From positions 24,166,485 through 24,230,484 of the forward strand of contig NC_134027.1 in assembly GCF_964204645.1 (NCBI RefSeq): 64,000 nucleotides of DNA, written 5' to 3'. The DNA comes from Tubulanus polymorphus. Lineage: Eukaryota > Nemertea > Palaeonemertea > Tubulaniformes > Tubulanidae. The position numbers and the translations under genes are program-made. Positions 14,401-63,070 of this stretch are shown here, in pieces. The notes under the pieces are model-generated. The model made no database searches. It saw only the letters and a list, made by a program, of their open reading frames with translations, and was not told where the DNA came from. Each line of letters opens with the position of its first letter. Position 1 is the stretch's first letter.

Positions 14401-17400
14401 AAAAAGGGTTCTTCTGATAGGCCCTAACAAAAACTCTAAGGCCTATAATAAAATGCTTGTCAGTCCTAAATGAAGGATTCTACATTTGATTTCTATTGGA
14501 TATAACAAAAATATTTACAAAAAGGGGCACTTTTCCCAAAATTCTGGAGGGAAACTGCCACCCGCTATGAACGGCCTTGTCTACCTATTCCGGAATCGCA
14601 TAATCTGTAAACCTGATGCAAAGATGCCGGTAGAGAGTTTGTAATCCAGAATTGGTTGTCCTAATCAAGAAAATTTTTCATCTGAAACCTGTGTTAAAGT
14701 CTTCCTTGTTTTCTTTGATCCTAGTTTCTGTGAATGTACCTTCATCCGTTTTTTTGTGTTTTTTTTTGCAGCAAAGATCAAAATGCCGTCTGGTGAAACC
14801 ATCGAGCCGAAAATTGAAGATAACAAGGACGGAACGGTGACCGTTCGTTTCACCCCGAGTGAAGTCGGACAACACGATCTAACCGTCAAATATAACGACA
14901 CACCGATTCAAGGTAAGATTCTCAGAAATCCATTTCTTAACCCTTTCAATGCTGACTAATTAATACCCTATAGTGCTGAAGATAATTTGAAAATTTTAAA
15001 AAATTCCACCCTAGTAATAACGGGAATACCACTATAGTGCGTCTACACCGCAGTGTAGTGTATCATTAGTTACTAGTATTTCACTATGTTTGACAGGTGC
15101 TGCCATTACTAATTACATTAATACACCACTGTGCGGTGTACTAGCAAAATCCATCACTGATTTATACACCGCACTGCAGTGTAGACGCACTGAAAGGGTT
15201 AAAGAGATCGTCATTCGTCAAAACTACGGATGTCGAGACACCGAGAAACTTCGCTACGACTCGCGAATAATGAAGAGTTAGATATAAGTCCCACAATCGC
15301 AAAGTTGAAAAGTTGAAAAATTATCAAAACATGAAGATTTATCTTTGAAAATCAGAATTTTCGGTTTTCCACTAAAAGCTATTATCTATTTCATTCCTGT
15401 GGGAATTTAACAAATTTTTTACCAAAAACCTAGAAATGGAATTTGGATAATGCTATTAACCATGTGTTTATCAGTACATGATCCAATGAAAAATGAATGA
15501 ATTGTAAGTAACATTTTAAATTTCTCTGATTCACTCCGGGAATTTTGTGTAATTTTATCAATTTCATTCCTCTGGGAAATTGACAAATTTTACCAAAAAC
15601 CTAGAAAACTTGGAATTTGGATAATGCTATTAACCATGTGTTTGTCAGTGCATGATTCAATGAAAATTTATCCGATTCACTTGGGGAATTTTATGTAATA
15701 ACGTGGAAAAAAGCAGGGAAACACGGGATTTGTTAATGGGTGGAAAGTGGCCGCCCTGCTTAATACCGAGTGCTCGTCGAGGCATGTGTTGCAGATTCCC
15801 ATTTACTTCGCGAATAATTTCATCCAAATCGAAATGCCCTTTATACACTCAGTAAGACCGGAATTCCAGAATTCGGTAATAAACAAAAATCTATTAACTG
15901 ATTCTGATTGTGATTTCGGGCGCGCGTAATTCGGGTTAAGAGCCATCGTCTCGAACTGCCTTAGAAATTTCAGTCTAATTCAACGACGACGATTGATTGC
16001 GTATTGTTCTCACGCTCGTTCGTAAGAAGTCGGGTTCTTTCCGCCCGCCCGAGACCTGAGTCAAATTCTAATGAATCGATACGACTCGAAATCAACAGTC
16101 GACGCGGCGTAGACGTACGGAGACAATTCGAGGAACGGAGTTTATTTTTCGACGCCCGCCGATTCTACGTACCGTTTACTGGTTTCGCGTTTTTGGATTT
16201 AAATCTGAAGATGTTACTTCATCCAAGTTACTACGGAATTATAGATTAGTTGATAATAAGTGAAAAGCTTAGTTCATAATCATAAATCTGGAAACATCAG
16301 TCCCTGTAATGTCGTTGGACTAATTTTCAACAGATCTTTAGAAAACTTCAGGACCTATTACGTAATTGGAGTTATTTTCAACAGATCTTTAGAGCACTCA
16401 TTCGGAACGAATCGGTTCTTCATCTACAAATGTGGTGAAGAAATCTTCTACGGTTGAAGTCATCGAAACGAAGTTCGACTTCGAGTCTACTCAACCACAG
16501 AGTCGCAGATTTTTCAGTCCTGATAAAAGTGTCCGTAATCCTTATTTTGAGAGATATTCAAGTCATTCGAGACCTGAAAAGTCATCTTTCACATTTACGG
16601 AGACGAAATCAAGCTCTCAGGATATTCTTAGTTGATTTCGATTATTTCGTCAGTTTTCGAAATTTTTCGCTATTATTTCGAAATTTCGAGACCTTTTCTC
16701 TTCGGACGAACTCGGGCTATTGAATCTTTAATCAACTTTTTCTCGAAAGATTGAAAGCTCGAGATCGACCATGAGTTACTACGAGAGGTATGTTTCACGA
16801 GGTGATAGAGGTACGATGGGGAGTTCGTCGGTGTACAACGCATCGCACGGCGGTCGAGCGACGAATTTCGAAATTTCCCGCAACGATCGAAATTCCGATT
16901 TACGTCTGACGAACGGTATTAATGAAAGTTCGGAAAGGTCAACGCTTACCGATAGATATCAAACGGGAAAGAGTTACCATTCGTCGTCCGGATTCGAGAC
17001 CGGAATCGAGACCGGATCGGACATTACCGCCGGCTCGAGCCTCGGTGTCCAGTCGCTAGTGAAAACCGCGTCGAGAAGTTCGAGTCCCGTTCCGGCCGGC
17101 AGTCGCATCATAAAAATCAAAGAACGGACGACGACGTACAGCGTTCCGGACTCGAACTCCGGCGCGGAAAAAACCGAAGACGTCACCGAGATCGTCGACG
17201 TAAAGAGTAAACCGGCCGCATACGCGAATTCCGGTTCGTCGGGTTATCTAACGTCGAGGAGGATGTTGAGTCCGGAAAGAAGTCCGTCGTCGTATCTGGA
17301 GAGGTACGCGTCGTCGTCCTATAACGGCGAGAGTTCACCGTCGAGATACAACCACAGCTCCGGTTACGTACGCTCCAATTATGAAAGTAAGTCGTCTGCT

Positions 17401-20400
17401 GTGGCGAGTCCAGTAACCTCGACAACATCGACAGAAACAACCATGTCTAGAAGTTGGGAGACCGGGGTCAGTGGTGGCAGTGCTGCTGCTGGGCACTCGT
17501 ATCTGGAAAGGTATTCCAGTCCGGCGAGGTCTTCAACCGAAGTGACCGTGACTGAAACAACGTCCGGTCTCGAGTCGGCCCGACCGACTGAAACCGCTTC
17601 AACTTCTAGCACTCGTACGGAAAGAACTGGTTCCTCATCTCTGAACGCGGCGGAGCGATCTTCGACGGTTGAAGTCATCGAAAGCAAGTCCGACTTTGAG
17701 TCGACTCGACCGCTTTCGAGTAATTCATCGGAGTCGCGGCGTTTGAGTCCCGAAATAAGCGGCAGTTCGTATCTGGAGCGATATTCGAGAAGTCACAGCC
17801 CGGAAAAGAAGTCGTCGACTGTCGTAGTTACGGAGAAGAAATCGACCTTGGAGTCGACTCAACCGAGGCAATCGAATTATTTCGAGGGACGGACTTTGAG
17901 TAGTGATAGAAGTGGCGGTAGTTCTTATCTTGAAAGATATTCAAGTCCTGAAGAATCAACTTTCACAGTTACGGAGACAAAGTCAACCTTAGAGTCGACT
18001 CAACCACAGTCGAGTTATTCGGAGTCACGGATTTTGAATCCTGAAAAGTCGTCGACTGTAACCGTTACCGAAACCCGGTCCACCGGTGACGACGTGAAAC
18101 CTCTTCGTTCGGAGTTCAGTTATTCAGCACCAGGTGGCGCTGCTCGCGCCGAAAAGTCGGAAATCTCATCGGTGACAGAATCAACGAATCGTAGGATCGG
18201 TTATCTCGCATCGAGGGCGTTTAGTCCGACGAGAAGTTCGTATCTGGATCGATACTCGATTCACAGCCCGATTACGAATTCTTCTTCGACCGTCGAAGTC
18301 GTGGAAACAAAACGAGACACGACGAATTTGAATCCGACTGAATCGGAAACGCGGTCGGTTACCGAATCGACGAAACCGATTCAGGCGTATTCGTCTCGTA
18401 GTTTGAGTCCGAGAAGTTGGTATCAGCAGCGCTTTTCGAGAAACCCGATGGAATCGTCAACATTCGCCGAGAGTTCGTCCAATTTCAATTCATCTTTATT
18501 ATCGGAGCAATCGACGGCGGAACAGCCGGAAAGATCATCGACTTTCACACTTACCGAGACAGAATCCACTGTAGAGTCGACTCCACAGCAGTCGAGTTAT
18601 TTGGAGTCACGAACTTCGAGTCCTGAAAGAGGAGGCAGTTCTTATCTGGAGCGCTATTCAAGAAGTCAGAGTCCTGAAAAGTCGTCAACTCTAACAGTTA
18701 TGGAAACAAAATCCACTGTAGAGTCGACTCCACAGCAGTCGAGTTATTTGGAGTCACGGACTTTGAGTCCTGAAAGAGGAAGCAGTTCTTATCTGGAGCG
18801 CTATTCAAGAAGTCGGAGTCCTGAAAAGTCGTCAACTCTAACAGTTACGGAAACAAATTCCACTGTAGAGTCGACTCCACAGCAGTCGAGTTATTTGGAG
18901 TCACGGACTTTGAGTCCTGAAAGAGGAGGCAGTTCTTATCTGGAGCGCTATTCAAGAAGTCGGAGTCCTGAAAAGTCGTCGACTATAACAGTTACGGAAA
19001 CAAAATCCACTGTAGAGTCGACTCCACAGCAGTCAAGTTATTTGGAGTCACGGACTCTGAGTCCTGAAAGAGGAGGCAGTTCTTATCTGGAGCGTTATTC
19101 AAGAAGTCAGACTCCTGAAAAGTCGTCAACTATAACAGTTACGGAAACTAAATCCACTGTAGAGTCGACTCCACAGCAGTCGAGTTACTTGGAGTCAGGG
19201 GCTTTGAGTCCTACTACTACAAGCGGCAGATCATATCTCGAAAGATTTTCAAGTCCCCAAAGGTCGTCGACTTTAACCGTTACGGAGAAAACTTCGAATA
19301 CGGAATTGGAAGAACCTGCTCGGGCTGGTTACCCGGAGGCACGTGGGCTTAGGGCGACTGGAAGTCCAGCTCTTTCAGATACAATCGTTACGGAAGCAAC
19401 AATAGAATCAAAACCGCCGATTTCTTATGTGGATAGATATTACAGGCGAGCACCGGAACATCTCATAGTGGAAAAGAAAACCCTGACAGAGTCTCCAGTA
19501 CACCTCGTTGCGGAGAAGGAAACAGTAACAGAGTCTCTGGAGCACCTGGTTGTGGAAAAGACGACCCCGGTAACAGAGTCTCCGGAGCACCTGGTCGTGG
19601 AGAAGACAACTGCGACTGAGTCTCCACAATACCTCATCGTAGAAGAGACAACCACAGTAACAGAGTCTCCTCGTAACATCAGCCCATCGTTTACTAACAC
19701 GACTGAATCGACCTTGACCTCGTACGACTTGACGGGATCTCGAAGCGGAGAACGAACTCCGGTTAAACCGGAGCCCTCGGTTTCGTCGTACTCGCAATCG
19801 TCCGACATCAGCTCCGACGCTCCGATCAACGAGATACAACGGATTCGCGAAACCGAAACGCGAACCATCACCGAAGAGCGTAAGGATTTCCTCACGCCCG
19901 ATTACGTGCCGTCAAGCGGTAGGAAAATTTACACTGTTAACAGGAGCCCGAGTCCAGCAGTAGCCGATCGAGTCACCGTGGAACAGAGGACACGAGCTGT
20001 TAGTCCGCAAGTTCTCAGAGTGCGCGGCCGCGAACAGAAAAAACAACGCAGTCCAAAACTCATTCGAGTACATCGCAGTCCAAGTCCTAATGTTGTTAGG
20101 GTACATCGCGGTCCGAGTCCAAATGTGGTCAGGATACACCGCAGTCCTAGCCCAGTTATAGTGCATCGTAGTCCTAGTCCTAATGTGGTTAAGGTTCATG
20201 GTGGTCAAAGTCCTAAAGTAGTTAGGGTGCATCGCAGTCCAAGTCCGGTTATAGTGCATCGTAGTCCTAGTCCTAATGTGGTTAGGGTTCATCGTGGTCC
20301 AAGTCCTAAAGTAGTTAGGGTGCATCGCAGTCCAAGTCCGGTTAAAGTGCATCGTAGTCCTAGTCCTAATGTGGTTAGGGTAAATCGCAGTCCAAGTCCA

Positions 20401-23400
20401 AAAGTAGTCAGGGTACATCCCAAGCCAAGTCCAATCAGGGTGCATCGCAGTCCAAGTCCGATCAAGGTTCATCGCAGTCCGAGTCCAAATGTGGTTCGGT
20501 TACATCGTAGTCCGAGTCCAAGAGCGGAAAGAAAAGTCATTCAAGTCCAACAGCATTCCGAACCTCTTCACGTGGCATCGGAAAATATTTTACAAGCGCA
20601 GCGAAGTCCGAAAATAGTACACGTACAAAAGCAGGACGTGAGCCCGGCGAGAACGCGAAAACACAAACATAAAAAACATCGTAAAGAAAAGAAAATATTC
20701 GCGGTTCATCGATCGAGGTGGAATGAACCCGCGGTTCTAGCGGACGACGGATCGACGGTCGAAGAGAAAATAGTACAAATACGATATAAAGACGAACCGG
20801 ACGTCGTGAAGTCAGAGGTGAGGAGAGTGCGACGCGTAGAACCGGCGGTTTTTACAACGGTCGCCGAGCCGGTTGTACATCAGCTGAACGGTGAACCCGG
20901 GGTCGTGTTTAGCGGCGCACCGGGACGAGTTCATTTACAGAGAAGCGTAACGCCGGTGAATTCAGGTCACAGAGTCATCCGTATTCATCGCACGCCCGAA
21001 GCAACGCTGTCGACTCGAAGAGGAATCGACGTGCAGTCCGCGCCATCTCCGAATTTTTCGGAATTTCAGCATCGCTTTGTTACGACGCAACGGCGGATCG
21101 AGCCGCAGCAGGTCGTGCAGGTCGAACGAAGCGTCAGCTCGCAACAACCGCAGCAGGTCGTGCAGGTCGAACGAAGCGTCAGCTCGCAACATCCGCAGCA
21201 GGTCGTGCAGGTTGAACGTAGCGTCGGCTCGCAACAACAACAACCTGTCGTGCGGGTCGAACGAAGCGTCAGCTCGCAACAACAACAACCGGTCGTGCGG
21301 GTCGAACGAAGCGTCAGCTCGCAACAACAACAACCGGTCGGCATCATGAAACAAGATGCAGTAATTCCGAAAACAGAACACGCGAAACTGGAAACGAGCA
21401 CGAAGGAGTCTCACCACCACCGCGTTATGACTACGTCTACCGCCGCCGTATCGCCGTCTCCGTCCAACAGAGGGCGCAGTCCGTTCCGTTGGAAGAAAAA
21501 GAAGAAAAACAAGACGAAAAACGACCACAAACGACGCAGAGAGTTCATCGAAGAATACGCGTTCACTAATAGTACGAGCGCCGATAACGGCGTGAAAAAA
21601 TATTCAGCGATGAATAGCTACGTGCCTAAAGCTACTGCTGGGTTAGATAGCCCGCTTAAAGGTATATTCTATATACATTAATGATACAGGCTCCGGCTAT
21701 AAGCTATTTTTAACTGCTAGTTGAACCCCAGCGCGGAGTTGGACGGTTGACCGAATTGGTCTTTAAGATTGTTTTTAGAACTAGAATGAGCTTAGACCGG
21801 TTTATATATGTTAGATTGGTAATAGAACCAAAATGAGCTTAGACCGGTCTTAAGTTGTTAGATTGGCTTTAGAACCAAAATGAGCTTAGACTGGTCTTAA
21901 GTTGTCAGATTTTCTCTAGATCTGACATGAGCTTAGAAAGGTCTTCAGGTGTTAGATCTGCTTTAGAACCAAAATGGGCTCAGACTTGGCTTAAATTTTT
22001 AGATTGCCTATGAAACTCATTGTCTTAAAGGCTATGAAATTGGTCCCCAGTTTTCGTCATTACAAATTTTCTGTTCAGAAAGTATCCTTGTTCATTTGAA
22101 GTAGCCCCTTGAAAATTCCTATATTCACAGTGATAAAGCAATATCGAAGACAAATTAATTAAATGTTGGCCATCTTGTTTTTGTATATTACAGGTAGCCC
22201 GTTCAAGTTCCACGTGGATGCCGTTGATAGTGGATATGTAACCGCGTACGGTCCTGGTTTGAGTCATGGTATGGCTGGAGAGCCTGCCACCTTCAGTATC
22301 AACACTAAACATGCTGGACAAGGTATGTTCATTCTTGTTGAAAATAAGTCATGAGGCCTGTTTTATCCAAAGTCCGCGAACAGAGAATTCCAGAATTGGT
22401 AGACACCAATCGAAACCTGCCTTTGTATTGATTTTGGTAGGGCAGTTTAAGTAGTATTCATTGTTTGGAAAACAATGATATGTTATGAGCTGAAATTCCC
22501 TGAAAATCTACTGGAAGGACGTGGAAATTTTTGATTCCACGTAGGAGCGAAATTGGTGTGAAGTGTTGTTTTCAAAGTTCGGAGTCAAGGGTGACATTGC
22601 GTGTTGAAATGTGTGGGGATTGGCTCGTCTTGAAATTTATTTGGCTGTTATGCTAGAATTCATATTGGGGCAGGTATATGATTTTAGAGGGAAATTCAAA
22701 GGCTGATCTAAGAAACAATATTTTGTGGAATGGGGAAGGACATCCCCTTGCCACCCCCCTTCTGGTTATTTTTTTATCTTAAAATAGGGAATTTCCCCTG
22801 TTATTTATTTGGCTGGTAAATTTCGTTTGACTTTTTGATTGAGTGTCCCATACAGACCCACCACACCTGCCGGGAGCGAAACAGGGGGTTTGATTTTGAA
22901 ATCGGAAATCGAAGTACAAATATAGTTGTGTGATCGGCGGTCGAGTTAACAGAATTTTTTTTTTTTAAATCTAAGTACATAATTGGAAATTCGGTTCCGG
23001 TTCCGGTTCTTTCAAACAATCTTCCATTCAGTCTGAACCCTTCTGGTTATTAGGTTGATCTATGCGAGCGGGTTATCGTATTTCGATATTTCGGGTGAAT
23101 AATATTTGTCAGGGGTGTGTCTGAGTGGGGCTCGTTCGCTTGTAATAATAGTAATTAAGTAAGTCAATGAGTTGTATGAACTTAGTTATTAATTCTAGCA
23201 GTGTCTTTCTCTCTCTGTCTGATACTTGAAAATTTATTCAACGCCGAGCCCGTTCTCTCGATGTTTTCCTTCGCGTAATGTTTTTAGCCGATTTTTAGTG
23301 CGATCGTGAACGTATTCGAAGCATTCCGTTCTTTATTATCTGAAGTGTAAAAATCGTTTTTTTTATACCCCAACGTACGTACTTTATGAACTTTGAATTA

Positions 23401-26400
23401 CTTTTTTAAACAACCGCGGAAAAATTACGTCTTGACGTTTTAAGACTCATCTTCATCAAGTTTATCTTACAGCTCGTAATGATTAACGATCGCAATTTGA
23501 AAAGCCTATACAAGATTGGCAATGCAGAAAATCAAAATCTTCTGGCAGGAATTTGTTTCGTTTATGATAAAATGGCAACGTTTTACCTTCAGTGCGATCT
23601 CAATCCTGGTAGTAAAGGTCTTCGTAGTAACAAATTATTTCCAAATTATAATTTGTGTATCAATTACAAATTGGTTGTTTTTTTTTTCCTTAATGAATTT
23701 GCTAACTATAAAATGAATTTGATTTTCTCAAATTTTCCAAAATTGTCTAGAAAAAGTTGCCGCTAAGCAGAATTTAGAAATCATATTAACTGATAAAGTG
23801 ATGTTCATTTTTCTCGAATGAACTTTCTTCGAAACATTTCAAGCGGCGCTGTTGATACGAGGAATTATTTTTTCAAGTCTTCGTCATAAATCTTTTAAAA
23901 ATGAAGTCAAGATAATGAAACTTCTGAAGTCTTTACGAATCTGGTTCAAAACGACGTTTGCCTGCGTGTCAAGTGTGGGTGTTTTGCCGAAATGATTTTT
24001 GGGTGGATTCGACAATGATTTTCATACCGACGAATACGATAAACACTTGATGACTATAAAAGCTGAGTATTAGGTATGGGTACGTTTCTGTAAGGCCAGG
24101 CAAACCACAAGCTTGGACCTATGAGGTGAATAACGTGAAAAATTGTGAATTCGATGTCTGCTTAAAAAGTTATGAAAAATCTGTGAAAATCCATGAAAAT
24201 CTGTGAAAATTCGAGAAAAGTGTCTGTCAAAATATTTTGTCCCTGTTAACGTCAAGGAACTCAGAATTTATGCACAAGTTGTGTTTAAAGTTTAAGAAAT
24301 TGCAGTTGCGGCACAATTGTGTCTTGAGTCCCCGTTTGAAACTTGGTATCAAGTTGTTAGCGTTTCAAAATAGTATTAATTCTAAGCCTTGACAGCACTG
24401 TACATACATGCTTTGGTCACATAATCACCGAACTTTATTTTTCTATTTATTCTATTCATGTATTAATTTTGTAGCCGATCTGGGATTTGCAGGTATTGTT
24501 AGACGTATATTTATTGCAGGCCACGTGTTCACTCAAACGCTGCATTCACGGGATTTCGCGAGCGAAAAATTCCGCTGAAATATTTTTTTTCGAAAACCTG
24601 TGAATTAGTGTTCGATATAATCTTCTCACTTATAAACAAGTAACTGATTACTATAAATGCAGCCGATAGTTCATAATATTCTAATACGATAGAAAGATTG
24701 CCATCTAATATATCAGATATTTTGCTTGTATATGTATCGCTTTGCCGAATTGATAGCAATCATACAGAATATGAATATGATTATTGGATAATGGACAAAA
24801 ACCAATTTTCTTTGGAGCAGTGTGGGCGAGTGGTTAGAGGGTTGCACTCTGGGATGTCAGGTCATGGGTTCGAACCCCGTACATTGCCGTAGTGTCCCCG
24901 ACATTGCACTTATTCCCATTACCTAATGGGTACCAGGGGCCGGTTGCATAGTCATGGCTTAGACTTAAGACCAGTCTAAGACCAACTTAGTTCTATAGCT
25001 AATCTAACAACTTAACACCAGTCTTAAGATTTAAGACCACTTTTGGGCTTAAGTCACGACTGTGCAACTGGCCCCTGGTCTGATAGATGGCCCCTGAGCG
25101 CTTAGTAATAGCTCGGAGGTCACTTCTCTCCGGGGAGAGATGACTGATACAAAGTTACGTATACAGACTAGGGGTTATAATACCAATCGTATAGTTATGT
25201 TATTGATAACATTCATTGTTGATATCGGACACTTTTAATACTCTACAAATTATTCTTGCTATTGAAACCAGTCTTAATTTGTTATACAAGATTTTTTGAT
25301 AGATGAGCTAAGACTGGTCTTTAACTTCAGCGGGGCCATGGGGCATAATAACTCTCTGACATTTTGCTGTCCGTTAATTTTGATTTTGCTGTACTATCTA
25401 ATAATAACGCAAACCCGAAGATGTGTACATGAATATCACACTGTAACTGCACCTTTGGGGCTGGTTCCATTGAGTTGAATACTTTTCTTTCCTTTTCTAA
25501 CAAAAGATGTCTTAATAGCGTGAAACCGGGTCCCAACCTTAAATGTTAAACTAGAACTATCCGTTGTTGCTGTATGGAATAAGTTTGTGTGAAATTTGGA
25601 ATAATCATTCTTATGGACAAATCTAAATTTTCCCGAATCTGGCCCCTTGTTGATGTCTAGATTCGCATTATAAATCACAACTCTGTTGTAAAACTGTGAC
25701 TAAATCCATCCTCCTTTGTAGGGATTTGAACCCGATGGCATCATTAGACTACCATTACCCTACTTTAAGGTTTGAAAACCCATGTTGCCGCGCAAATGTG
25801 ACAAGAAGCTGTATAGCTACTGGTCAAGTGGACTAGTGTTCTATTGGCCTCCTGGTTTGCACGCTTGCTTTCTATGTACGAGACCCGGGTTCGATCCCCG
25901 GTGAGCGCGTATAATTTCACCATCTTCTTCACCCTTTCAGTGCATCTACTCTGCATCGCAGTGTATAGATCAGCGATAGATTTTTGTAATACATTGCACT
26001 CAGCGATAGATTTTAGTAATACATCGCACCACGGTGTATTTATTTAATCAAACAAAAACTCATATTCTTTTTGATTTAATTCATAATCAGTTATCTATTC
26101 AAAGATGGCAGCACCTGTCAAACATGACGCAATAATTGTAACCAACGATACACCGTCGTGCGGTGTAGACACGCTACAATGCGCTGCGGTGGAATTTTCC
26201 AAAATTTTGATAATTATGTCCAGCATTTAAGGGTAAGAATTGGAAGGGGTTGATTGTTACAGTGTTCATTATGGCAAAGTGACCGGGCGCCGATAGGTTC
26301 AAATCCCTGATTATTTACATGTATCCCGCGTTTCTATGTTTTGTGTAGAATTAAGTCGAAATTTTCGCTCACTGCAATTTTCTCGTCTCTCCGCAGGTGG

Positions 26401-29400
26401 TCTGGCCGTCGCGGTCGAAGGTCCGTCGAAGGCCGAGATCAAGTGCATCGACAACAAAGACGGCACGTGCACGGTGAACTACTTCCCGAGCGCCGCCGGC
26501 GAATACAAGATCATCGTCAAATTCGCCGACAAACACATCGCCGGTTCGCCGTTCACGTCGAAGGTCACGGGTTCGCCGCGCAAGAAGGCGTCGGTGAACG
26601 TCGGTAGCAAGAGCGAGGTTTCCCTGAAGGTCACCGAGACGGACATTTCGAATCTGACGGCGACTATTAAGTCGCCGTCCGGTACCGAACAGCCGTGTAT
26701 GCTGAAGAAACTCGCCAATGGGCATCTAGGTAACTTTTATTCATCGATATCCTACCAAAATTCGTTCACCTTCATTCAGCTCATTTATATCTATATATTC
26801 TTTTAGGCGAGAAGGGGCCGGTTGCTCAAAAGTTCCGGCGTTTAAATACCATAGTAACAATGAATTTTTGATTGTTTCTATTTCAACTATCTACTGGCTA
26901 ACTGTAACCAACTTTTGATCAACCGGCCCAAGATTTATACTAGTCCTGAAAATCCGCAAAAATTCATGGAGATTAGTAATTATTTTTGGAAAAAGTATGA
27001 ATTATTACGATTTTTCCGTGCGAAAGCTATGGAATTTTAGAAATGCGGACGGGATATTTTTTCTCGTGGTTTTAGTATTGTACGTAGACCTAGTATTTGT
27101 AGGCGTAAACTTTCAAAAGCAAAAAAACTAAACCTAGTTTTTGAATCTAGGAAAAAAATGTGGAAAAAAAACCTAGAACGATACTCCTCGTAGGTCTTTT
27201 TGTAATTTGTATCTGTGATGGTTTTATTTTAGGTGGGGCTCCACAACATGGTAATATTAGTTCACTGCTATCGTTTTGTAAACTGTTTGCAGTTGGAAAA
27301 TTATCATGTCTGTGCAATACGTTTTTTTTTTCTATCTTATTTATACGATTAATTCCATTCTGCCATCTGACTGTAATCTGATGATAATTAGGCCTCAGTT
27401 GTTCTCGCCTGCAGCAGCCGGGAAACTAGTTTTCACGCTTTGCGGTGCCACCTGCTGGCCATCTGCTGCGAGAAGTCTGCAGACGTTTTCTGCAATTCAC
27501 TGAACTCCTTTTAGACAAACAGTATTTCAGTAATGAGACGTTTATTAGCTCTTTTCTTTGGTCTATTCCCTAAAAACATTTTTAAAACATCAGATTTGTG
27601 ACAGTTTTGTGGAAGTTTGGAATTGTGTATTTTCTTTCGTAAGTTCAGTCCAAGTGTTTTTTCTCCTAAAGAAGTTGTGGCTACCTAGCAAAGGCCTATA
27701 GTGCTTGCTATAGCCAAAGCATCCAATAACTAATGATTGGGCAGTATATAGGTAAAAACTGACATAGCCAATGGCTGAACTGTACAAATAGCCAATGACT
27801 GAGCAGTATACTTTCCAATAACCAATGACTGGGCAGTGTGTTTTATCAGCCAATGATAGAGCAGTAAGGGCTCAAATAGCCAATCGCTGAACAGTATACT
27901 TACCATAGCCAATGACTGTGCAGTAAAGCCTTCAGTAACAAAAGGCTGAGCAGTTCCTTCTGTATGTTCTATTAGCCAATGATAAAGCAGTATTGGCTGA
28001 AATAGCCAATGGCTGTGCAGTATAGGCTGAAATAGCCAATGACTGTGCAGTATAGGCTGAAAAAGCCAATGGCTGTGCAGTATAGGACCAAGTAGCCAAT
28101 GGCTGTGCAGTATAATATTGTGACCGAAAATTATTTTGAATTTAAACCTTTCGCGGTTGAATAGAGTATATTAAATATAGTTAAGCAGTCTATATTTACT
28201 ATAAATCTGTATTCAATTGGTTTATCATGAACACTGGACTGAACGCTTGTGGTATGATATTCTGTATATTTTTAGGACCTTCCTTAATTTCTCCAGGTGC
28301 ATCATCAATCCATTAATTTACTGTCTTTATTTCAGTGATTAATTCTTCATTTTGCATGAAGGTCGTTTGCACATGAAACATCGCGCACGATTTCTATTCG
28401 GACCCCATTGTCTCTTCTTGTTGTAGATTCGTTTCAAAAAGCACTAACTTAAAATGCTTGACTCGAAAGTTGCAATATCTGCGATGTCTCGTGCGCGTCA
28501 ACCCCGAGTTCGAAATCTTTTCATTTTCATGAAATTTCTCACAAATTCGCATCATCTCAAATTACATGTACCCGCAGTGCCTTTCATTCGATACAATAAC
28601 TATCAATCTATTATCATCATCATGTCACAATATTTGAGACTAGAAATTAGACTAGAAATAGATGAATCATTCTCTTAAGAAGACAACTTGAATGTTGAAA
28701 AGGCGCCAGTTTCAATGACGAGGGCCTTTGATCCATTTCCACATTTTATGAGACCTGAGTCACCAATTCGAACTCAGTAAAACCCAGTTCCACAATTCTT
28801 AGCTAAGATTTGACTTTAGTTGGGTTAAAACATTTGAATTGAACTGATTTTAAAAATGAAGTTTTAGTCAAGCTGACTGACAAACTGTGATATTTTTAAC
28901 AGTTCATTTTAATTAAGATAAGGTCTTCTATACATTATTAGTTCCATGCCTCACAAATCGCAAAAGTATCAAATGCTTGGTACAGTGGATACTGAGCGCT
29001 GACCTGTGGAACTGGCTACACGTCCTTTTACGGGAAGCAAATTTATCATTCGAAGCCACTTTCTGATTCTCGATGACTTATCAAATAAACTGAAGGCTAG
29101 ATAGCTTCATTTGTCTATAAACCCGGAACGCAAAGTACTAACCGCGCTAATTAATACCGAACCCTTAGTATCACAGTAGAAATACCCGTCATAGACCCTC
29201 GTAGAGTACACTCTGGTTGGTGCTTCTTACTAACTATACTCATCATATCAACTCATACGAAAACAACAACAATAACATCGTTCATTTGAAAACATCTCAT
29301 CATGCAGTGCAGTGAGGATGGACATCTTTTTCCTGAAGAAATAACGCGCGATAATGAAGAAAAACTGTTAGAGGATTGGCATTTCGACTCATTTCAAAAC

Positions 29401-32400
29401 TGATGACGTTTTGAAAAATAGCTCATAGTATTGAGTCGAAACTCTCTAAGTTTTTCATCATAATTGTGGTTTTTCGTCTGAATTATAGACAGTCACTTGT
29501 ATACAGAAACCAACCTTCTCAGTCTCACTTAGCATCATTAGTGTCTCGATTAAGCTGAGAATTTCGACTTAAGTCCATAGACTATCTAGATCTGGATACC
29601 GGATATGGAACCAAAATTAGCTTAGACTATGATCTTAGACTTTAGATTGGCGATAGAACACTTGAAGATTTTACCCTAGTACATATTAGATTTTAGATGA
29701 GACACTTTTAGGAATCCCCCCTTAAAATAGTAGATATAGACGTAATGTAATCCTAGTAGATACAATGAAATAACCATCCATCCGTTTACATAGATTGACT
29801 CTATCTTACTCTGTATCCTGTCTACTCATCTCAACGTCAATGTGAATTGTGACGATATTCTTTTGGAAAAACTTTTGTATCATAAAATACATTCATCATA
29901 CTCCGATTTTATACTCCTCTAAGCGACCTCACCAAGGTCGTGCGGATACCCGTTCCCAAGCGAATTTGTCGCCGTGAAAATTTTCGATAATCGATTTTTC
30001 TTTTCTTTCTTTTTTTCTCGCGCGCTTTCAATTTAGGAATCTCGTTCACGCCTAAAGAGACCGGCGAACACCTGGTGAACGTACTCCGCAACGGTAAACC
30101 CATCCCGAACAGTCCGTTCAAAATACACGTCGGAGAAAGCGAGCTCGGTAACGCCGCCAAGGTCAAGGTCAGCGGACCAGGGTTGAAGGGCGGCATGGCG
30201 CACCAGAAAAACGATTTCACGGTCGACACGAAAAATGCCGGTTAGTATTTTTTCAATCACTCGTTTTGACCCTGTGTGGTGCAGGGACACTGTTCGTGTG
30301 TTCTTAACTGTGGTTGGTGAACTGCGAACCTAAGCCATTTACCATGGTTACTGGAATCAGTTGATGACGAAAGGCCCCTCGGCCCCAGTTACTGGGATTT
30401 GTTAGTGATTACTGATAAATTTGAACATAAATTTGAAAAGGATTGTTGGGGGTCTTGCCTTCCTTGATTACTGATTACTTTAATATTTGGTTCAGCAACC
30501 AGTTCCATTGTCGAGTCTTAGGTCCAAGAGTCATTTTGAATCTAACCACAAGTCTTAAGTTGTTAGATTGGCTATAGAACTAAAAATACCTAAGGTCTGA
30601 AGTCTAAGTCATGGAACTGGCTCCTGGAGGTCGGAAGGGATGTTTATGATTCTTTGACTGTCGAATGACTCCATGCGACTTCTAATCATCTTACAGGTTA
30701 CGGCGGTTTGAGTCTGTCGATCGAAGGTCCGAGCAAAGCCGACATCGAGTGCAAAGATAACGAGGACGGTTCGTGCAACGTCTCCTATCGTCCGTCGGAG
30801 CCGGGAACGTACATCGTCAACATCAAATTCGCCGATAAGCACGTGCCGGGCAGTCCGTACACGGTACGCGTCGGGGGTGAACCGTCGCAACGTCTCACCG
30901 AGAAAATCACTCGACAGAGGACGGCGGCCAACTTCTCCGACATCGGCAGTCAGTGCGAACTGAGCTTGAAGATACCCGGTAGGTACACTGATCGTCATCT
31001 TGGTCAATTTCAGAGTTAATGAGCAAACCCACAGTTGTTGATTGAACAGTTTATTTTCCTCCAGTTTTGACTAAACTTGATCAAGTTAGTTGTCGAATAA
31101 ACACTATAATCCGTGTATACTGTAGATAAATGAAGAAATCCCACGCTTCGAATTTAAAATTAAACGATCAAATTTATTATTATGTTTATTACGATCGAAT
31201 TTATTATTATGTTTATTATTACGTTGTGGTTTCATAATGATAAATTTGATCGTATAATTTTACATTCTAAGCGTGGGATTTCTTCATTTATCTTGATCAA
31301 GTTGATAAGTTATTTTTGTTTCTCTGATGATGAAGTTTAGTGAAAACATTGAAGCTGTAAGAAAAATTGTAGAAAATTGTACGATTGTACGATTGTAGAA
31401 TAACTGTGGGTACGCCTGATGATGGCTAATAGTCATTAGACGAAACGATGCGCTCACATATTTATACACTTCAATTCAAGAACGTTTCATCTTTGGCTGA
31501 ATCATTGTAGGATTCTCTTATATCGTCGATTTCATTAAATCAATTCTACTTGGAAGTCGTTCATGTTCATCCAATTACACATTTCATCACGCTTTCAATT
31601 CAAACAAGATATATCATTTATGATTACTGTAATTAACTGTGTGTGTGTGTGTAATCAATAAGCAATCACGTATGGATTCGTAATCTGTAAGTAGTAAATT
31701 TCTTGAACGGAGAGTTTTTTTTTTTTACTGGGATCGATTTTTCGTCAATTTCGTGGCTCGCTTAAATTCGTTGAAGAATTGAATACACTTATGCACAAAA
31801 TACCCGCAAACCCAATCTATCAACTATAATGATTTCACTTTCTTCAAACACGGTGGGAGAAGATCGTGACTCCAACACCTCACCACACAATACACCTTCT
31901 GTCAATTCAGTCTTGAAAAAAATCTGGATCAGATTTCAAAGATGGATACTAACTATAACCCTGACAAAAATTGCTACGAAAAGCTATGCAAAGCCCATAA
32001 AAAAATTAGTGACATGTTTTTAAGATTGATTCATTGCGTCAAAGGTGTCGGTGGTTACATCCGGCGGACCTGACTGCTGACAAAAATTTCAAAATACTCC
32101 AAAAATCAGAATAATTTCCAGTTCGTTTTCAATTTGACTACTATTTTTGAAGTCCAATTCTCTCCATTTTTGGGTGAATGCTACTGCAGTTAAAGATATC
32201 GGGTTGTCTGGTCTGATTCCGGGTTAAAGTTAGTAGCCGACTACATGGAAAAACTGGAGCTCAGAGGGGCCGTGTCACAGACTTCAGTTTCCATATAGTA
32301 ATGATACCAATGAAACCTTGAAAAACCTATGAAGCTTGAAGTCACTTGTGAACGAAGCCCCCTGGTTTTAGTTTTCATCCGTAAAGCCTGAGCACATTTC

Positions 32401-35400
32401 AGAATATATACATATATATATTTATATACCCTGCAATTCATGTCGTAAAAAACTCGTCAAATTTATTGTCATCAAATCTGTCTTGTAAAATGGCCGCAGA
32501 ATTCCTGGACCCCAGTGTGTTAAATCAATATGACATGATCAAGTTCATACTTAGTTCAAATACCATTAAACTACGAAATGTTCCACAAATTTTTTAACTC
32601 TGCGAAAGTAAAGACAATGATGGTGGCCACTGACCTGGAAAACTCGGAAAACTCAGGGAATTAGCAAAACCAGGGAATTTGACAAATTTTGCAAAAGATG
32701 ACCTGGAAAACTCAGTTATTGATTACGCATTTCTTTGTCAATACGGGATTGTACTAAGACTGAAAAGATGAGGCAAAAAGTCAGGGAATTTGTACATTCG
32801 TGGAAATAGGCCACACTGAAAATTAGAATGCATTAATTTTGATTCTAAGCTTAAACTGGGCCAGGGTCAAATTGTCCTAAATTGTAAGATGATTATTTGT
32901 GAAGATATTTGTGATGATATTTGTTGTTTTTTTTGCGTGCACGCGTTGCAGGTACGAGTCCGTTCGACATGCAGGCGTCGGTGTTGAGTCCCGGCGGACA
33001 TACGGAACTGTGCGACATCATGAACCGTGACGACAATCACTACAGCATCAAATTCGTGCCGAAAGAAATCGGTATCCACACGGTCAGCGTTAAACACAAG
33101 GACGTTCATATCCCTGGTGAGTTGTCGATAAACCGACCGGTCGTAACTTAAAATCCATGAAAGCTGTGTTTTCAGTTTGCTGGAATTTTAGAGGGGGCTG
33201 CATTATGACATCTTTGCTGCTGAGTAGCAAGGCTTTCGATCCTCCAAAAAATACAGGACCCAGTTCCACAGTTGTGAGTTAAGATTTGACTCAGAGTTAA
33301 CTCATTGAAAATGAACTAATTTTAACTCAGAGTTAACACTAACTCAGAACTGTGGAACTGGATCCAGAAGATTAAGCTTGAATTTGGTGAAGTCTTCTCT
33401 ATTTTTCGCATTAGTTCAATTTGTTATCAGCATTGATAGAATTATATTAACATGCGCTCTGGTAGGGGTAGAAGATATTTTATAAGGGGTAGTTGATTCT
33501 CAGAAAATCATTTTGAAAAAAATGATTTAGCTGAAAGGTTATCTTTAACATCTATGAATTGTATGGTTTTCACCATAACTGTAGTGAACTGATTTAAATC
33601 TCAGTATAGTTAACGAATAAACACCCGCAGTAGATTTGTAGAACAAATTTATTTTCTAACAGTTTCGAGGTTAATTCTAAACCTCATACAATGTTGTCAC
33701 AACAGTTGTCACCCTATTGATCGGACTTGAGCAGAGTCTGCTGTATTATTCACTCACATACCTATATTTTCTTGTTTTATAGGCAGTCCATTCCAATTCA
33801 CGGTTGGACCGATGACCGAGGGAGGTGCCCATAAAGTTCGCGCGGCTGGACACGGTTTGGAACACGGAGAAGTAGGAATCCCGGGTGAGTATACCTTGAT
33901 TTCCTCTCGAAATATCCATCTATTTGATTACTTTCGTCGTCATTCATGCTAATTTATGCTAATTTATTCGCGATTCCAGGTGAATTTAACATCTACACTC
34001 GTGAAGCCGGTGCTGGTGGTTTGTCCATCGCGGTCGAAGGTCCGTCGAAGGCTGAAATCAACTTCGAAGACAGAAAGGACGGATCATGCGGAGTTGGGTA
34101 CACCTGCAGTGAACCAGGTATGTAATCATGTAAAAGGAAATCTTCAGCACGGTGCAATTGCATATTTGTGGGATTGAGACTGGTCTTAAGTTGTATGATT
34201 GGTCATGGGACCAAAATTAGCTTAGACTAGTCTTAAGTTCTTAGATTGGTTATAGAACCGAATGGGTTTAGACTGGCCTTAACTGGTTTGACACTAACTG
34301 CTTTTCTGGGTGAAGCAGGAAGTGTTTGACATGAACCAGTTAAGGGTTGAGCTTTGCTATAGAACCAAAATGAGCTTAGACTGGTCTTAAGTTGTTAGAT
34401 TGGCTATAGACCTAAAATGAGCTCAGACTGGTCTCAAGTTGTTAGATTGGCTATAGGACCAAAATGAACTTAGACTGGTTGTTAGATTGACTATAGAACC
34501 ATATTGGTGTTAGACTAATCTTGAGATTGAGTATATGTTGTATTTTTCTCTGCAGGAGAGTACACGGTATCGGTTAAATTCAACGACGAGCACATCCCCG
34601 ATTCGCCGTTCAAAGTCTACGTCAGCCCCGAGAATAAGGAAGCTCGTAAGATCAGCGTGCTCGCTCTACAAGACAAGGGTCTGCAGGTACGAACGACACA
34701 CTGCATGAGGGATGAAAAAACTTACAAATTACGTAGTGGAATTGACATTTCAACTCGATGCTCAGAGCTATTTTGAGAATTAGAGTCAAAATCCTCTTAT
34801 TAGTTTTATTTTAAAATTGTTTTTTGAATACTATTGAGAGTGCTTGGTGAATGGGCACTCTGCCAAACCTATGTTATATCCAGGCAGAAAATTACGGGAA
34901 GGAGTAATTGGGATAGTTTCCGGTTGAAATAGTGTGTTGTCGGTCCACGTCGGTGCATGCTAATGTGGGATTGCTAGTTTGCTGTACTTCCTGAAAAAAA
35001 TTAGAAAGACGGGGTTAATTTTTATTAGATTCGGGTTTAAATTTGTAATGACGCGGTTTGCGTAATTCGTTCTCTCTCCGATTTCAGCCCGGACGACCGG
35101 CCGCGTTTACGCTCGATATGAACGGAGCGAACGGCGAATTGAAAGCGTTCGTCGTTTCGCCGTCCGGCGCCGAAGAGGAAGCTCTCATTCAACCGATCGA
35201 CGATGGTACGTGCGTCGCTAATTTAAACGATCAGAATTTTTCTCTCGTTAATCGCTAATTATTAATTGATAGAATTACGTGTAGAGTATTCCTTTACGCC
35301 GATAGCGCGCGCAGCGAAAATAACAATTTCGATACTCAGTTCGCCCACGGACTCATAAGGCCTTATTTAACCCTTTCGGTGCTGACCAATTAATTCCCTC

Positions 35401-38400
35401 AAGTGCTGGAGATAATTCGTAAATGTTTGAAAAATTCCCCACTGCATCAAATAGCAGGCATCAGCTGTAATGTGTCTGCACTGCGGTGCGGCGTATCGTT
35501 AGTTACTTATTTCTAACTGTTTGTCAGGTGCTGCCATCTTGCATTAAAGATGATAAACGTTCACGAATTACATCAATAGCTAAGTCCATCACTGATTTAC
35601 CCACCGCAATGCGGTTTAGTCGCACTAAAAGGGTTAAAACTACTTGAATATGAATTCACCTTCCAGAATTCCACCAGAAATATCAAATTTTTTCAGTACT
35701 CCGTTGCATTTCGTCATAATTTTCCCCCAAAAACATTTCCAAATTTTCTTCTTGATATTTCCATCAGTATTTTCGAGGTAACGATTTGCACAAATTTAAT
35801 TTTCATCGTTTCTCGCAACATCTGAATTCAATTCAACACAATTTTCATTCCTTTCTTTTCCGCAGTCCTTCTAAGATCTCTTGTGGAAAATACTTGTGTA
35901 ATAGAAAAAAATTGTTTTTATTTTTTCCCCTTTTCCCTTCCATATTATGACGCCTTAGAGAAACTATTATTTCAGTCGTCAGTTTAATCGCCGTTCGCCG
36001 TTCTTTTTCTGTATTCCATATTATCAAAACAGGGCCTTAAACGAAATAGAGTCCACGGAGCTTTTCACTTGTTTCACGATTGTGTACTTCTGAACAAGAG
36101 TTACAATCTACTGTTGCAATTAGTGTTTCTTGTTTTCAAGCAGAGCGCTCAAAGTCACGAAACAAGTGAAAATCATTTTATGTTTCGTGTTTTTTTTTTC
36201 ATTCGTGCTGCGCGCGCTAGTCCTTAGTGTAATCTCCCCCGAAAGCATTCATATTGTTCACCTTACTCGCTCTAGATGTTAATTCTCGTTTGAAACAAAT
36301 CCTTCGGAAAAGATCGCTGCCTTCGTAATTCCCCCAATGATGTCATCAAATTAACTGCAGGGACAAGCGGTTTACTCAGTTTCAAGTTGAATATAACCAA
36401 CCGGAGTTTTTAAGGAGATAGCCATCCTTTCCGCAGAAGGGTGCCCGTGCGTCTAGAATAAAAAGTGATTCTTTGGGCCGATTTTGAAATTGATTTTGAT
36501 TTACGAAAGTTATGCGTACATGTAATTAATTGAAATGTAATTTGAAACGTAATTTTTTTTTTTCAATCTCGAAATCCTCAGTTCAAATTTGTAAGTAACG
36601 CTAAAACCTGACGGTTGAAATCCCCTCTGAATACGTGCGCCTTCCCCTTATATACATCACATGCATATTCAACTCAGCCCCCCTACCCCCCATATACCCC
36701 CCATGTACAGCAGAGTGGTGTGTGGCTCCTTTCCTCTTCCTACCTCTCTCTCTCTCTGCCTGGTTTTGAGACCCTTTCCTTCAAATATGAAATTACGCCC
36801 TTAAAGTATATCATTTTTCCTATGATACCTATTATTACTTCCACTTCGTCGTCCTAGAATGCTGGTTATATATTATCCCGGGCCAGGTTTTATAAACCGG
36901 TATCATGCTTGACCCGGGAGTTAACTCAATCGGCGATAATGAATTTAGTTAACAAGCCCTGAGTTAAAGTTGACACCGGTCTTTAAAACCGGCCCGTGCT
37001 GAGTTTGAAACGTTTGACAGGGTTTTTGTATCGGCGTGTAGCATTTTCCCCGATCCCGCTATTTCCCTGCGAGCTGTGTCTACGTTCGAGTTTTAATCCG
37101 AGGCAAGTCGAATTTCAACTCCGACGTTTTCGAACTCGACCGTAGATGTAGCTCGCAAAACATCCCACGTGGTGCCGGCTAATTTCTGAAATGACCTCCC
37201 TCCATAATTTGTCGTAAGATATATCGAACGACGGTTTCGATTTCTTGAAGCGTCAGCCGCGATCACACGCAAGCGTTAGTGATTTATGTATGAGACGATT
37301 TGGCACGGGTCTAATTCGGCCTGCGCTTCAGAAGAGCGCATATTCACACGTAAATTTCTCGCCCTAGAATACTAGAATACTAGAAACTATCGAAATTATG
37401 CTGCGGTAAGTGTCACTAAAGATAATAAGATAGAAACCCACTATTTACAGATTGAAAGAATTTAAAAACCAGAATTTATTTATTTAATCAAAAATATATA
37501 AAAGACACGACGTTTCGATCTCACCGTAGAGATCATCGTCAGGTGTGAGATCGAAACGTCGTGTATTTTATATATTTTAGATTGAATAAATAAATTCTGG
37601 TTTTTAAATTCTTTTAATCTGTAAATAGTGGGATTTTATCTTATTATCCGTTCACCACGTTTGAGTGTGGTTATCGTTCGAAACATGAAAATATTTGACG
37701 AGAGAAATCCCACGACGATTCAGACTTTATTACGAGAAACGTTTCGGCTAAACACTATTAGCCATCATCAGGCGTACTGATGATGGCAGTACGCTTGATG
37801 ATTCTATTCAAGAATTTTTCATCTTTGACTGAATAATTGTGGGATTTCTCTCGTCATCCGTCCAGGGATGAAAACGGCCCATATTGAAAAAGTCGGAAAA
37901 TATTTTCAAAAAAAAAGAATTTTTCAGATTTTTTTTTTTTTGGAACAAAAATCAGTAACTTTTAGCCAAAAAACTTACTTCCTTTTGGTCAAAATGTAAA
38001 TAGTTAGGGCCTGAATTAGAGCCGCTTTTTGAATGAGACGCCATATTGGTTTCTCCGACTCCGCAGCTGTGCTAACAACTGCCGAAAACCATCTTAAGGA
38101 GCAAATTTGCCCCGATTGATGAACGCTTGTGCGATCGCGGCTTGCGTAGCTCGAAATACTTACAACAGGTAAAGGACTATATGAATGAGATATGTGTAAT
38201 TTATTTCAGCAGATGAAGGAGAGACCGGTAAGATGTTCGTGTGTGTAGGAGCTCTATCAAATAACAATAAATTGGCCTAGGAAGATGAATTTTAACCAGA
38301 GTTATCGAATTCATTATTATCATTATTATTATTATTAGTATTTTTATGTAGGGTTCGATATTAAAAAAAGATAGAGCGCTTCCGCCTATTAAACGAGCAC

Positions 38401-60018: not shown

Positions 60019-60949
60019 TGGACTGAAATCGTTTTTTTTTTTGTCAATTCATGTTTCGCTTTTTCCATAAAAGTCTACCTAGAACATTTGATGGGTTATT
60101 TTTTCTCGCATGGGCTATTTATTTTTTCTAATTGAATGATTTGACATATAACTCATCCACTTTGGATGTACCTTTTCCTAAGACCTCATAACTAAGTTAA
60201 AGTCTATGGTTTATTACGCAGGTAATCTCTTATATCTCGGCATCACTACTTCTGTAATTCTTCTTGACGATAAGGCTACTTGCTTTTTCAACCTTTTGTG
60301 AAATCCATTGTCAGCTCTGATCCTTAGCATATAGTTTACTGTAGCCAGTGTGGATTTAATCGAGATTTCTCAATTGCAGAAACTCAGTTTTTTCTTTTAA
60401 TATTTCGTTATCACGAGGTTCCATTGATATTTTCGGGCGGACATCAAATTTCTGGCATGCTGCCAACTCGATACGGAATGTGCTGTGTGGCGGTGCTGGA
60501 AAGATTTTCAGAGGAGAAAATAGCGTGTTCATGCAATATAGTACGTTTAGTGCCAACAATGCGGTATGTATCTCAAATACAACATCAATATATGAAAAGC
60601 AAACAATATTACCATTACCATCACAGGGGCAGATTCAGGAATTAAGCAAAACTTCTAGCCGTAGTTTTAGCACAGTAAGAAGAGCGAACATCTATTCTAA
60701 ATGACAGTGCGTAACATGGATCAAAATTCTCATTATATTCGTCACTTTTTTGACTGGTAGGGGTATTTTCTCTATTGATTTATGTCGACAATGAAGATAT
60801 TTGAATCCCTTTTCAAACTGAAACCTGAGTAAAGATTTCCATGCGCGAGCTTTATTCAGATATGATTATGACGTGCGGAACCTATAGAAAGCGTTATATC
60901 TCTGATTAACTCAACAGAAAATAAACGAGACCAAATTGACGGTTTTAGA
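60019..60949. other. Intergenic region upstream of the GPCR
   Basis: AT-rich. No further gene, repeat or clear promoter element was recognised. Confidence 0.5.
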
Positions 60950-63020: not shown

Positions 63021-63038
63021 TGGTGCCGTGACCAGGAT
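63021..63038 (+). promoter_or_regulatory. Primer-binding site of the retroelement
   Basis: TGGTGCCGTGACCAGGAT starts three bases after the LTR. Its leading TGG and position are those expected for a tRNA primer-binding site. Confidence 0.6.
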
Positions 63039-63070
63039 ATACAAACAGTAAATTCAGAAACTCAGCCAAG

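What the first reader, a model, noticed from the sequence alone, without database searches (positions are those of the whole stretch)
16771..22322. A 4.9 kb exon gives filamin a giant repetitive alternative N-terminus
The sequence shows a 1,630-codon frame with its own ATG, an in-frame stop 42 bases before it, and a phase-1 donor (AAAG|GTATAT after 21661). That phase matches the next acceptor, the repeat-17 exon of filamin at 22194, and the joint restores the usual G-SPF motif. The result would be a 2,423-residue protein with filamin repeats 17-24 (mechanosensing pairs and dimerisation repeat) but no actin-binding domain. Drosophila cheerio is known to make a short C-terminal filamin; here the short form would carry a large low-complexity domain I do not recognise. 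No acceptor between the stop at 16729 and the ATG has the right phase for cassette use from exon 14772-14912, which favours an alternative first exon.
Basis: partly seen in the sequence, partly recalled or inferred. Interest (0 to 1): 0.88.

Follow-up and report, generated by a model that had tools for sequence, protein, structure and literature searches.

The report
Giant orphan first exon in filamin
Inside a filamin gene of a ribbon worm lies a single 4.9-kb protein-coding exon, with no relative found in our searches, that is placed to give the cell-scaffold protein filamin a long disordered front end in place of its actin-binding head; that it is really spliced this way has not been shown by any RNA.

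Summary
Window 16771-21661 is a 1,630-codon frame (stop at 16729, donor AAAG|GTATAT) in a 7.3-kb intron of a filamin gene of the ribbon worm Tubulanus polymorphus. Joined to 22194 it reads through to filamin's stop: 2,423 residues, eight filamin repeats, no actin-binding domain. New here: the frame is under protein-level selection. In a 93-bp tandem array third codon positions vary more than the others (18 of 31 against 10 of 62, Fisher P 7e-5), while a decayed partial copy just upstream shows no such bias. A donor this good, in phase, so close to the stop is expected 0.01 times by chance; no AATAAA lies at 16700-26400; no strong in-phase acceptor offers cassette use. Against: no transcript could be examined, and no homologue or annotated Tubulanus protein with the exon was found. 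Filamins lacking the actin-binding domain are known in fly and worm; the giant disordered N-terminus is what is new. Best reading: an alternative first exon encoding a long phosphorylatable arm on a dimeric scaffold. New variant of a known kind.

The parts
16771..21661 (+). Giant exon: 1,630-codon frame from ATG to phase-1 donor
   Evidence: selection; single copy
16729..16731 (+). In-frame TAA upstream of the ATG
21662..21667 (+). Donor GTATAT (site score 6.3; 13 other donors of the gene 2.2-11.2 leave-one-out)
18547..19212 (+). 147-bp x 4.5 tandem array ([28 protein letters not shown] unit)
20067..20459 (+). 93-bp x 4.2 tandem array ([11 protein letters not shown] units), third codon positions most variable
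21111..21340 (+). 45-bp x 5.1 tandem array ([15 protein letters not shown] unit)
14772..14912 (+). Standard upstream filamin exon (repeat 16), phase-1 donor, joined to 22194 in P0001 and P0003
22194..22322 (+). Shared filamin exon: last strand of repeat 16 and start of repeat 17
26397..41670 (+). Span of the remaining 12 filamin exons to the stop codon (exon list)
   Evidence: identical to the C-terminus of P0001
16393..16615 (+). Decayed partial copy of the giant exon (79% and 75% identity in two blocks), differences without codon-position bias
15751..16250 (.). CpG-rich block, possible promoter or 5' end (weak: one of 44 such blocks in the window)

Best explanation
The 4.9-kb frame is a translated alternative first exon of the filamin gene. 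Transcription starts inside the 7.3-kb intron, between 14913 and 16770; translation starts at 16771; the donor at 21661 splices in phase 1 to 22194. The product is a 2,423-residue filamin without the two CH domains: a 1,630-residue, cysteine-free, Ser/Thr-Pro-rich, mostly disordered arm followed by repeats 17-24 with the mechanosensing and ligand-binding pairs and the dimerising last repeat. Shown: open frame, protein-level selection in its repeats, donor, in-phase join, eight filamin repeats, single copy. Inferred: promoter, transcript, protein. Proposed mechanism (inference): dimers formed through the last repeat carry two long arms whose Ser/Thr-Pro sites are phosphorylated by proline-directed kinases; the arms place the scaffold repeats on something other than F-actin (microtubules, intermediate filaments or muscle attachment structures) and set its reach, much as the fly's short filamin works at synapse and Z-disc without the actin-binding domain.
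For: Frame and join. Not chance. Selection: 93-bp array varies at 5, 5 and 18 of 31 columns at codon positions 1, 2, 3 (P 7e-5), 26 of 28 self-matches keep the frame, and the upstream copy shows no bias. Donor: 93 of 3,975 GTs score as high; 0.010 in-phase sites expected in the 20 bases before the stop; no AATAAA at 16700-26400; no donor of 4.5 or more at 14930-16770. No strong in-phase acceptor. A at -3 of the ATG. 75 Ser/Thr-Pro sites against a mean of 33.7 and maximum of 47 in 300 shuffles; 84% of windows predicted unfolded. Eight Filamin repeats downstream. Precedents for short filamins.
Against: No RNA seen. P0001 and P0003 skip the exon. No protein in the length range 897-2852 matches the exon at E 0.001 or its last 376 residues at E 1, so an annotated Tubulanus product is unlikely to exist. 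Codon usage does not match the filamin exons (mean score -0.10 against 0.35; third-position GC 0.48 against 0.67). The 147-bp and 45-bp arrays do not reach significance alone (P 0.40 and 0.06). The donor is the third weakest of the 14 scored (its score is on the full matrix, theirs leave-one-out). No TATA motif at 14913-16770. One ATTAAA lies at 22158. EB1-type motifs, which would support a microtubule target, are absent.
Confidence: 0.68

Rival explanations
1. A separate gene nested in the filamin intron: same strand, ending at the stop 21679-21681 with its own 3' end, not fused to filamin.
For: The frame has its own ATG and stop; one ATTAAA at 22158; a T-rich stretch follows it.
Against: No AATAAA from 16700 to 26400; a donor-like site in phase 20 bases before the stop is expected only 0.010 times by chance.
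Confidence: 0.13
2. Cassette or 3'-exon use: the giant exon, or part of it, is spliced from an upstream filamin exon and lies inside a full-length filamin of up to about 4,000 residues, or ends one after repeat 16.
For: The donor at 14912 is phase 1; an in-phase AG at 18128 scores 3.7, within the range of the gene's real acceptors (-3.2 to 13.0).
Against: Of 99 in-phase AGs at 16732-21639 none scores above 3.7; no in-phase AG lies between the stop at 16729 and the ATG, so the conserved-looking start would be lost; a 3'-exon would also need a poly(A) site, and no AATAAA is there.
Confidence: 0.12
3. A silent or recently dead exon: once coding, no longer expressed.
For: Absent from the public protein models seen.
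Against: No stop or frameshift in 4.9 kb, while an adjacent partial copy has drifted without codon-position bias.
Confidence: 0.07

Closest known systems
Drosophila cheerio short filamins (FLN90; CherA)
   Same: Filamin without the actin-binding domain that keeps the C-terminal repeats: last 8 Ig-like domains in CherA (PMC5521747, passages), nine predicted in FLN90 (PMC5173320, passages)
   Different: The passages describe no large added N-terminal domain; here 1,630 residues are added
C. elegans FLN-1C
   Same: Alternative transcriptional start; encodes only the final 9 filamin repeats (PMC3143143, passages)
   Different: Only repeats are described in the passages, with no giant N-terminus
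C. elegans FLN-2 (FLN-2C, FLN-2D)
   Same: Isoforms without actin-binding domain from alternative starts, in a filamin interrupted by large nematode-specific regions (PMC3143143, passages): a precedent for big lineage-specific sequence in an ABD-less filamin
   Different: FLN-2 is a divergent filamin with about 20-23 repeats; sequence not compared here
Long mollusc filamins and Lineus longissimus isoform X3
   Same: Lineage-specific enlargement of filamin
   Different: Inserts are extra Ig repeats (by eye) or, in Lineus, a 267-residue coiled-coil-like stretch; 8 of 120 fetched proteins examined; none matches the giant exon
Mytilus edulis filamin model X30 (P0033)
   Same: Model without a CH-domain annotation
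   Different: Keeps most rod-1 repeats and only replaces the start

Membership tests
Filamin | Filamin/ABP280 repeats with a C-terminal dimerisation repeat | tested here: met
   Eight PF00630 stretches in the 793-residue part; its last 93 residues match solved last-repeat chains such as 3cnk, 8pa0 and 1v05 (that these are dimerisation repeats is recalled)
Filamin | N-terminal actin-binding domain of two CH domains | tested here: not met
   No Pfam family in the 1,630-residue part and no CH in the rest; the standard isoform P0001 has two CH stretches
Short filamin isoforms lacking the actin-binding domain (FLN90/CherA/FLN-1C type) | C-terminal 8-9 repeats only, no CH domains | tested here: met
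   if the join is real
Short filamin isoforms lacking the actin-binding domain (FLN90/CherA/FLN-1C type) | Own transcription start inside the gene | not testable with these tools
   No RNA data; indirect signs only
Proteins with the short linear F-actin motif (SFM) | VxxLxxxFE or a relaxed form | tested here: not met
   0 strict and 0 relaxed matches in the arm; motif from passages of PMC13364712, relaxed form my own
EB1-binding microtubule plus-end proteins | [ST]x[IL]P motif (recalled) | tested here: not met
   0 matches, 2.4 expected in shuffles

The most novel reading that the evidence does not exclude
A nemertean-lineage exon with no detectable ancestry arose inside a filamin intron and swaps filamin's actin-binding head for a 180-kDa disordered, phosphorylatable arm, turning a mechanosensing actin crosslinker into a scaffold for another filament system or assembly: one gene with two mechanically different dimers, chosen by promoter.
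Probability: 0.35. Interest if true: 0.65.

Novelty: new variant of a known kind. Interest (0 to 1): 0.47.

Why it matters
Short filamins without actin binding do synaptic and Z-disc work in fly; how such forms are aimed is not settled. A natural short filamin with a 1,630-residue arm under selection would show one route: a new N-terminus supplied by an alternative first exon. It would also be a clear case of a very large orphan coding exon growing by in-frame tandem duplication inside an old, conserved gene.

Tried and rejected
Chance open frame: rejected. Transposon or gene-family origin: by DNA the genome search found the exon once plus two pieces of its upstream decayed copy; by protein, 12 matches were itself, the decayed copy and ten that cover only residues 1090-1250, the RSPSP stretch (29 of 325 candidates scored). 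Homologue in long mollusc filamins: inserts of 80 or more residues were examined in 8 of the 120 fetched proteins; they are Ig repeats by eye, or a Lineus coiled-coil-like stretch, and Lineus X7 had none. BLAST of the exon plus 10 filamin residues against all 120 gave nothing better than E 0.016, over the 15-residue junction. Codon usage as coding evidence: did not support it. CpG-rich block as promoter: one of 44 such blocks, so not specific. Upstream block 16393-16632 as an extra coding exon: open for 80 codons, but no codon-position bias and no donor of 4.5 or more follows before 16770. NG86 counts on the RSPSP cores (pS 0.57, pN 0.09) were set aside because I picked the cores by peptide pattern; NG86 on five 147-bp units gave pS 0.22 and pN 0.18, and on the 45-bp units pS 0.22 and pN 0.08. 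Motifs in the arm: SFM, WH2-type, EB1, LC8, 14-3-3 (R..[ST].P), PP2A and WW gave 0 matches; PxxP gave 1 against 8.7 expected. The other long frame with a filamin repeat, at C4 near 11,005,495, shows no match to the exon at E 1.

Limits: the three protein searches each scored about 8,000 candidates out of 5.8 billion sequences and were bound by length; repetitive words could have crowded out distant relatives. Of 2,500 hits the best 120 were listed. The P0001 cluster has 4 members, of which I saw the representative only.
Full report
What is there. The window holds the 3' part of a filamin gene on the + strand. From 16771 an ATG opens a frame of 1,630 codons; the nearest in-frame stop upstream is at 16729, and past the donor at 21661 (AAAG|GTATAT) the frame would close at 21679-21681. 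The stretch lies in the 7,281-base intron between filamin exons 14772-14912 and 22194-22322. I rebuilt the downstream gene by splice sites and reading frame: 13 exons from 22194 to the stop at 41668-41670. The filamin part from SPFKFHVD on is identical to the C-terminus of public protein P0001, filamin-C-like isoform X4 of Tubulanus polymorphus, and the contig length given for that protein, 27,807,848, equals that of contig C3 in which the window lies. The organism is therefore taken to be this ribbon worm (Nemertea).

Is it coding? An open frame of this length has a probability near 1e-31 at the stop frequency of the other frames, and the next longest stop-to-stop frame in the window has 356 codons. 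Stronger is the evidence of selection. The exon is rich in in-frame tandem repeats: 147 bp x 4.5, 93 bp x 4.2 and 45 bp x 5.1. Of 28 self-matches 26 keep the reading frame, and among those up to 92% identical the mismatch rates at codon positions 1, 2 and 3 are 0.118, 0.129 and 0.277; these matches overlap, so the rates are descriptive. In the 93-bp array, chosen by DNA alone, 5, 5 and 18 of 31 columns vary at the three positions (Fisher P 7e-5); the 147-bp array (P 0.40) and the 45-bp array (P 0.06) do not decide. A natural control sits just upstream: 16393-16615 is a partial copy of the exon (79% and 75% identity to 17608-17711 and 17895-17989), and there the differences fall evenly (13 of 66 third positions, 26 of 133 others, P 1.0). 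The exon keeps its protein while the copy drifts. The non-repetitive ends of the exon could not be tested this way. Codon usage gave no support: the exon does not share the filamin exons' preferences.

Is it joined to filamin? The donor scores 6.3 on a matrix from 13 donors of this gene, whose leave-one-out scores run from 2.2 to 11.2; 93 of 3,975 GTs on the strand score as high, and 0.010 such in-phase sites are expected in the 20 bases before the stop. There is no AATAAA from 16700 to 26400 and one ATTAAA, at 22158. The phase match itself means little, since 12 of the 13 introns modelled are phase 1. The exon ends D-S-P-L-K-G before SPF, where the standard exon reads D-T-P-I-Q-G; I note the likeness but give it no weight.

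First exon or cassette? None of the three AGs between the stop at 16729 and the ATG is in phase (read); of 99 in-phase AGs from 16732 to 21639 the best, at 18128, scores 3.7 against -3.2 to 13.0 for 14 acceptors of the gene. No donor of 4.5 or more lies at 14930-16770, so a 5' UTR intron is not evident. The ATG has A at -3, and there is no TATA motif from 14913 to 16770. A CpG-rich block at 15751-16250 may mark a promoter, but it is one of 44 such blocks in the window. An alternative first exon fits best; a partial cassette is not excluded.

What the protein would be. The arm is 18.7% Ser and 9.9% Thr, has no cysteine, about 180 kDa and pI 9.8; its first 978 residues vary from acidic to mildly basic in 163-residue segments (pI 5.0-8.8) and the rest is strongly basic (10.1-12.0). 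It holds 75 Ser/Thr-Pro sites against a shuffled mean of 33.7 and maximum of 47 in 300 shuffles; 84% of 51-residue windows are predicted unfolded by a charge-hydropathy rule, against 15% in the filamin part. No Pfam or PDB match was found for it at E 1. The filamin part has eight Filamin repeats and matches 51 distinct solved sequences at E 1e-10, nearly all named filamin. So the likely product is a dimerising scaffold with two long disordered, phosphorylatable arms and no CH domains. What the arms bind is unknown; SFM, WH2-type, EB1 and LC8 motifs are absent, which points, weakly, away from F-actin and from EB1.

Is it known? Short filamins without the actin-binding domain are. [quoted passage not shown] In C. 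elegans, fln-1c comes from an alternative start and encodes the final 9 repeats, and the divergent FLN-2, with large nematode-specific regions, has isoforms without the actin-binding domain (PMC3143143, passages); FLN-2 is thus a partial precedent. The passages that I saw describe no giant added N-terminal domain. The exon itself has no relative that I could find: no hit among proteins of about 897-2852 aa for the whole exon at E 0.001 or for its last 376 residues at E 1, each scoring about 8,000 candidates; nothing beyond the junction among 120 fetched filamins; in the worm's own genome 12 protein matches, being itself, the decayed copy and ten that cover only the RSPSP stretch. The long mollusc filamins examined (6 of those fetched, with 2 Lineus proteins) are long for other reasons. 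A search of the paper library for filamin with nemertea listed one paper, on synaptonemal complex proteins by its title; searches for filamin with 'alternative first exon' and with 'internal promoter' listed none on this by title.

What counts against it. No RNA could be examined. The exon is missing from the public Tubulanus proteins that I could see; had a fused or free protein of that length range been annotated, one search should have found it (inference). Gene models made from limited tissues can miss isoforms, and repeats can be masked, so this lowers but does not remove the case. I put the first-exon reading at 0.68, a nested gene at 0.13, cassette or 3'-exon use at 0.12, and silence at 0.07.

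Verdict. It is a new variant of a known kind, of moderate interest now and higher interest if the isoform and its target are shown.

Noticed in passing
16393-16615: Decayed partial copy of the giant exon's own repeat sequence, in the same frame and upstream of its ATG; useful as a neutral control.
   Followed up: yes
60872-61939: Open 356-codon frame with a weak rhodopsin-type receptor match (PF00001, E 2.2e-5, 24.5 bits, below the cut-off of 30.5).
   Followed up: partly
63032-64000: Open frame at the window's end with DUF1759 (PF03564, E 5e-37), recalled as a domain of BEL/Pao-type retroelements.
   Followed up: no
11390-11577, 21776-22006, 34356-34479, 53070-53217: A 47-bp minisatellite unit recurs as separate arrays through the introns, one of them directly after the giant exon.
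   Followed up: no
49009-49428: 20-bp unit repeated 21 times, AGGAGTATCATAGGAGCAGC.
   Followed up: no
L018 (G000:C4:11000000-11009999), from 5495: A frame of over 1,500 codons with a filamin repeat near its start followed by repetitive sequence; a second giant repetitive exon beside a filamin repeat, unrelated in sequence to the one here.
   Followed up: partly
G000:C9:481254-492478: A further multi-repeat filamin-type locus in the same genome.
   Followed up: no
P0013 (Lineus longissimus filamin isoform X3), after residue 1542: A 267-residue LEQERLEEE coiled-coil-like insert that isoform X7 lacks.
   Followed up: no
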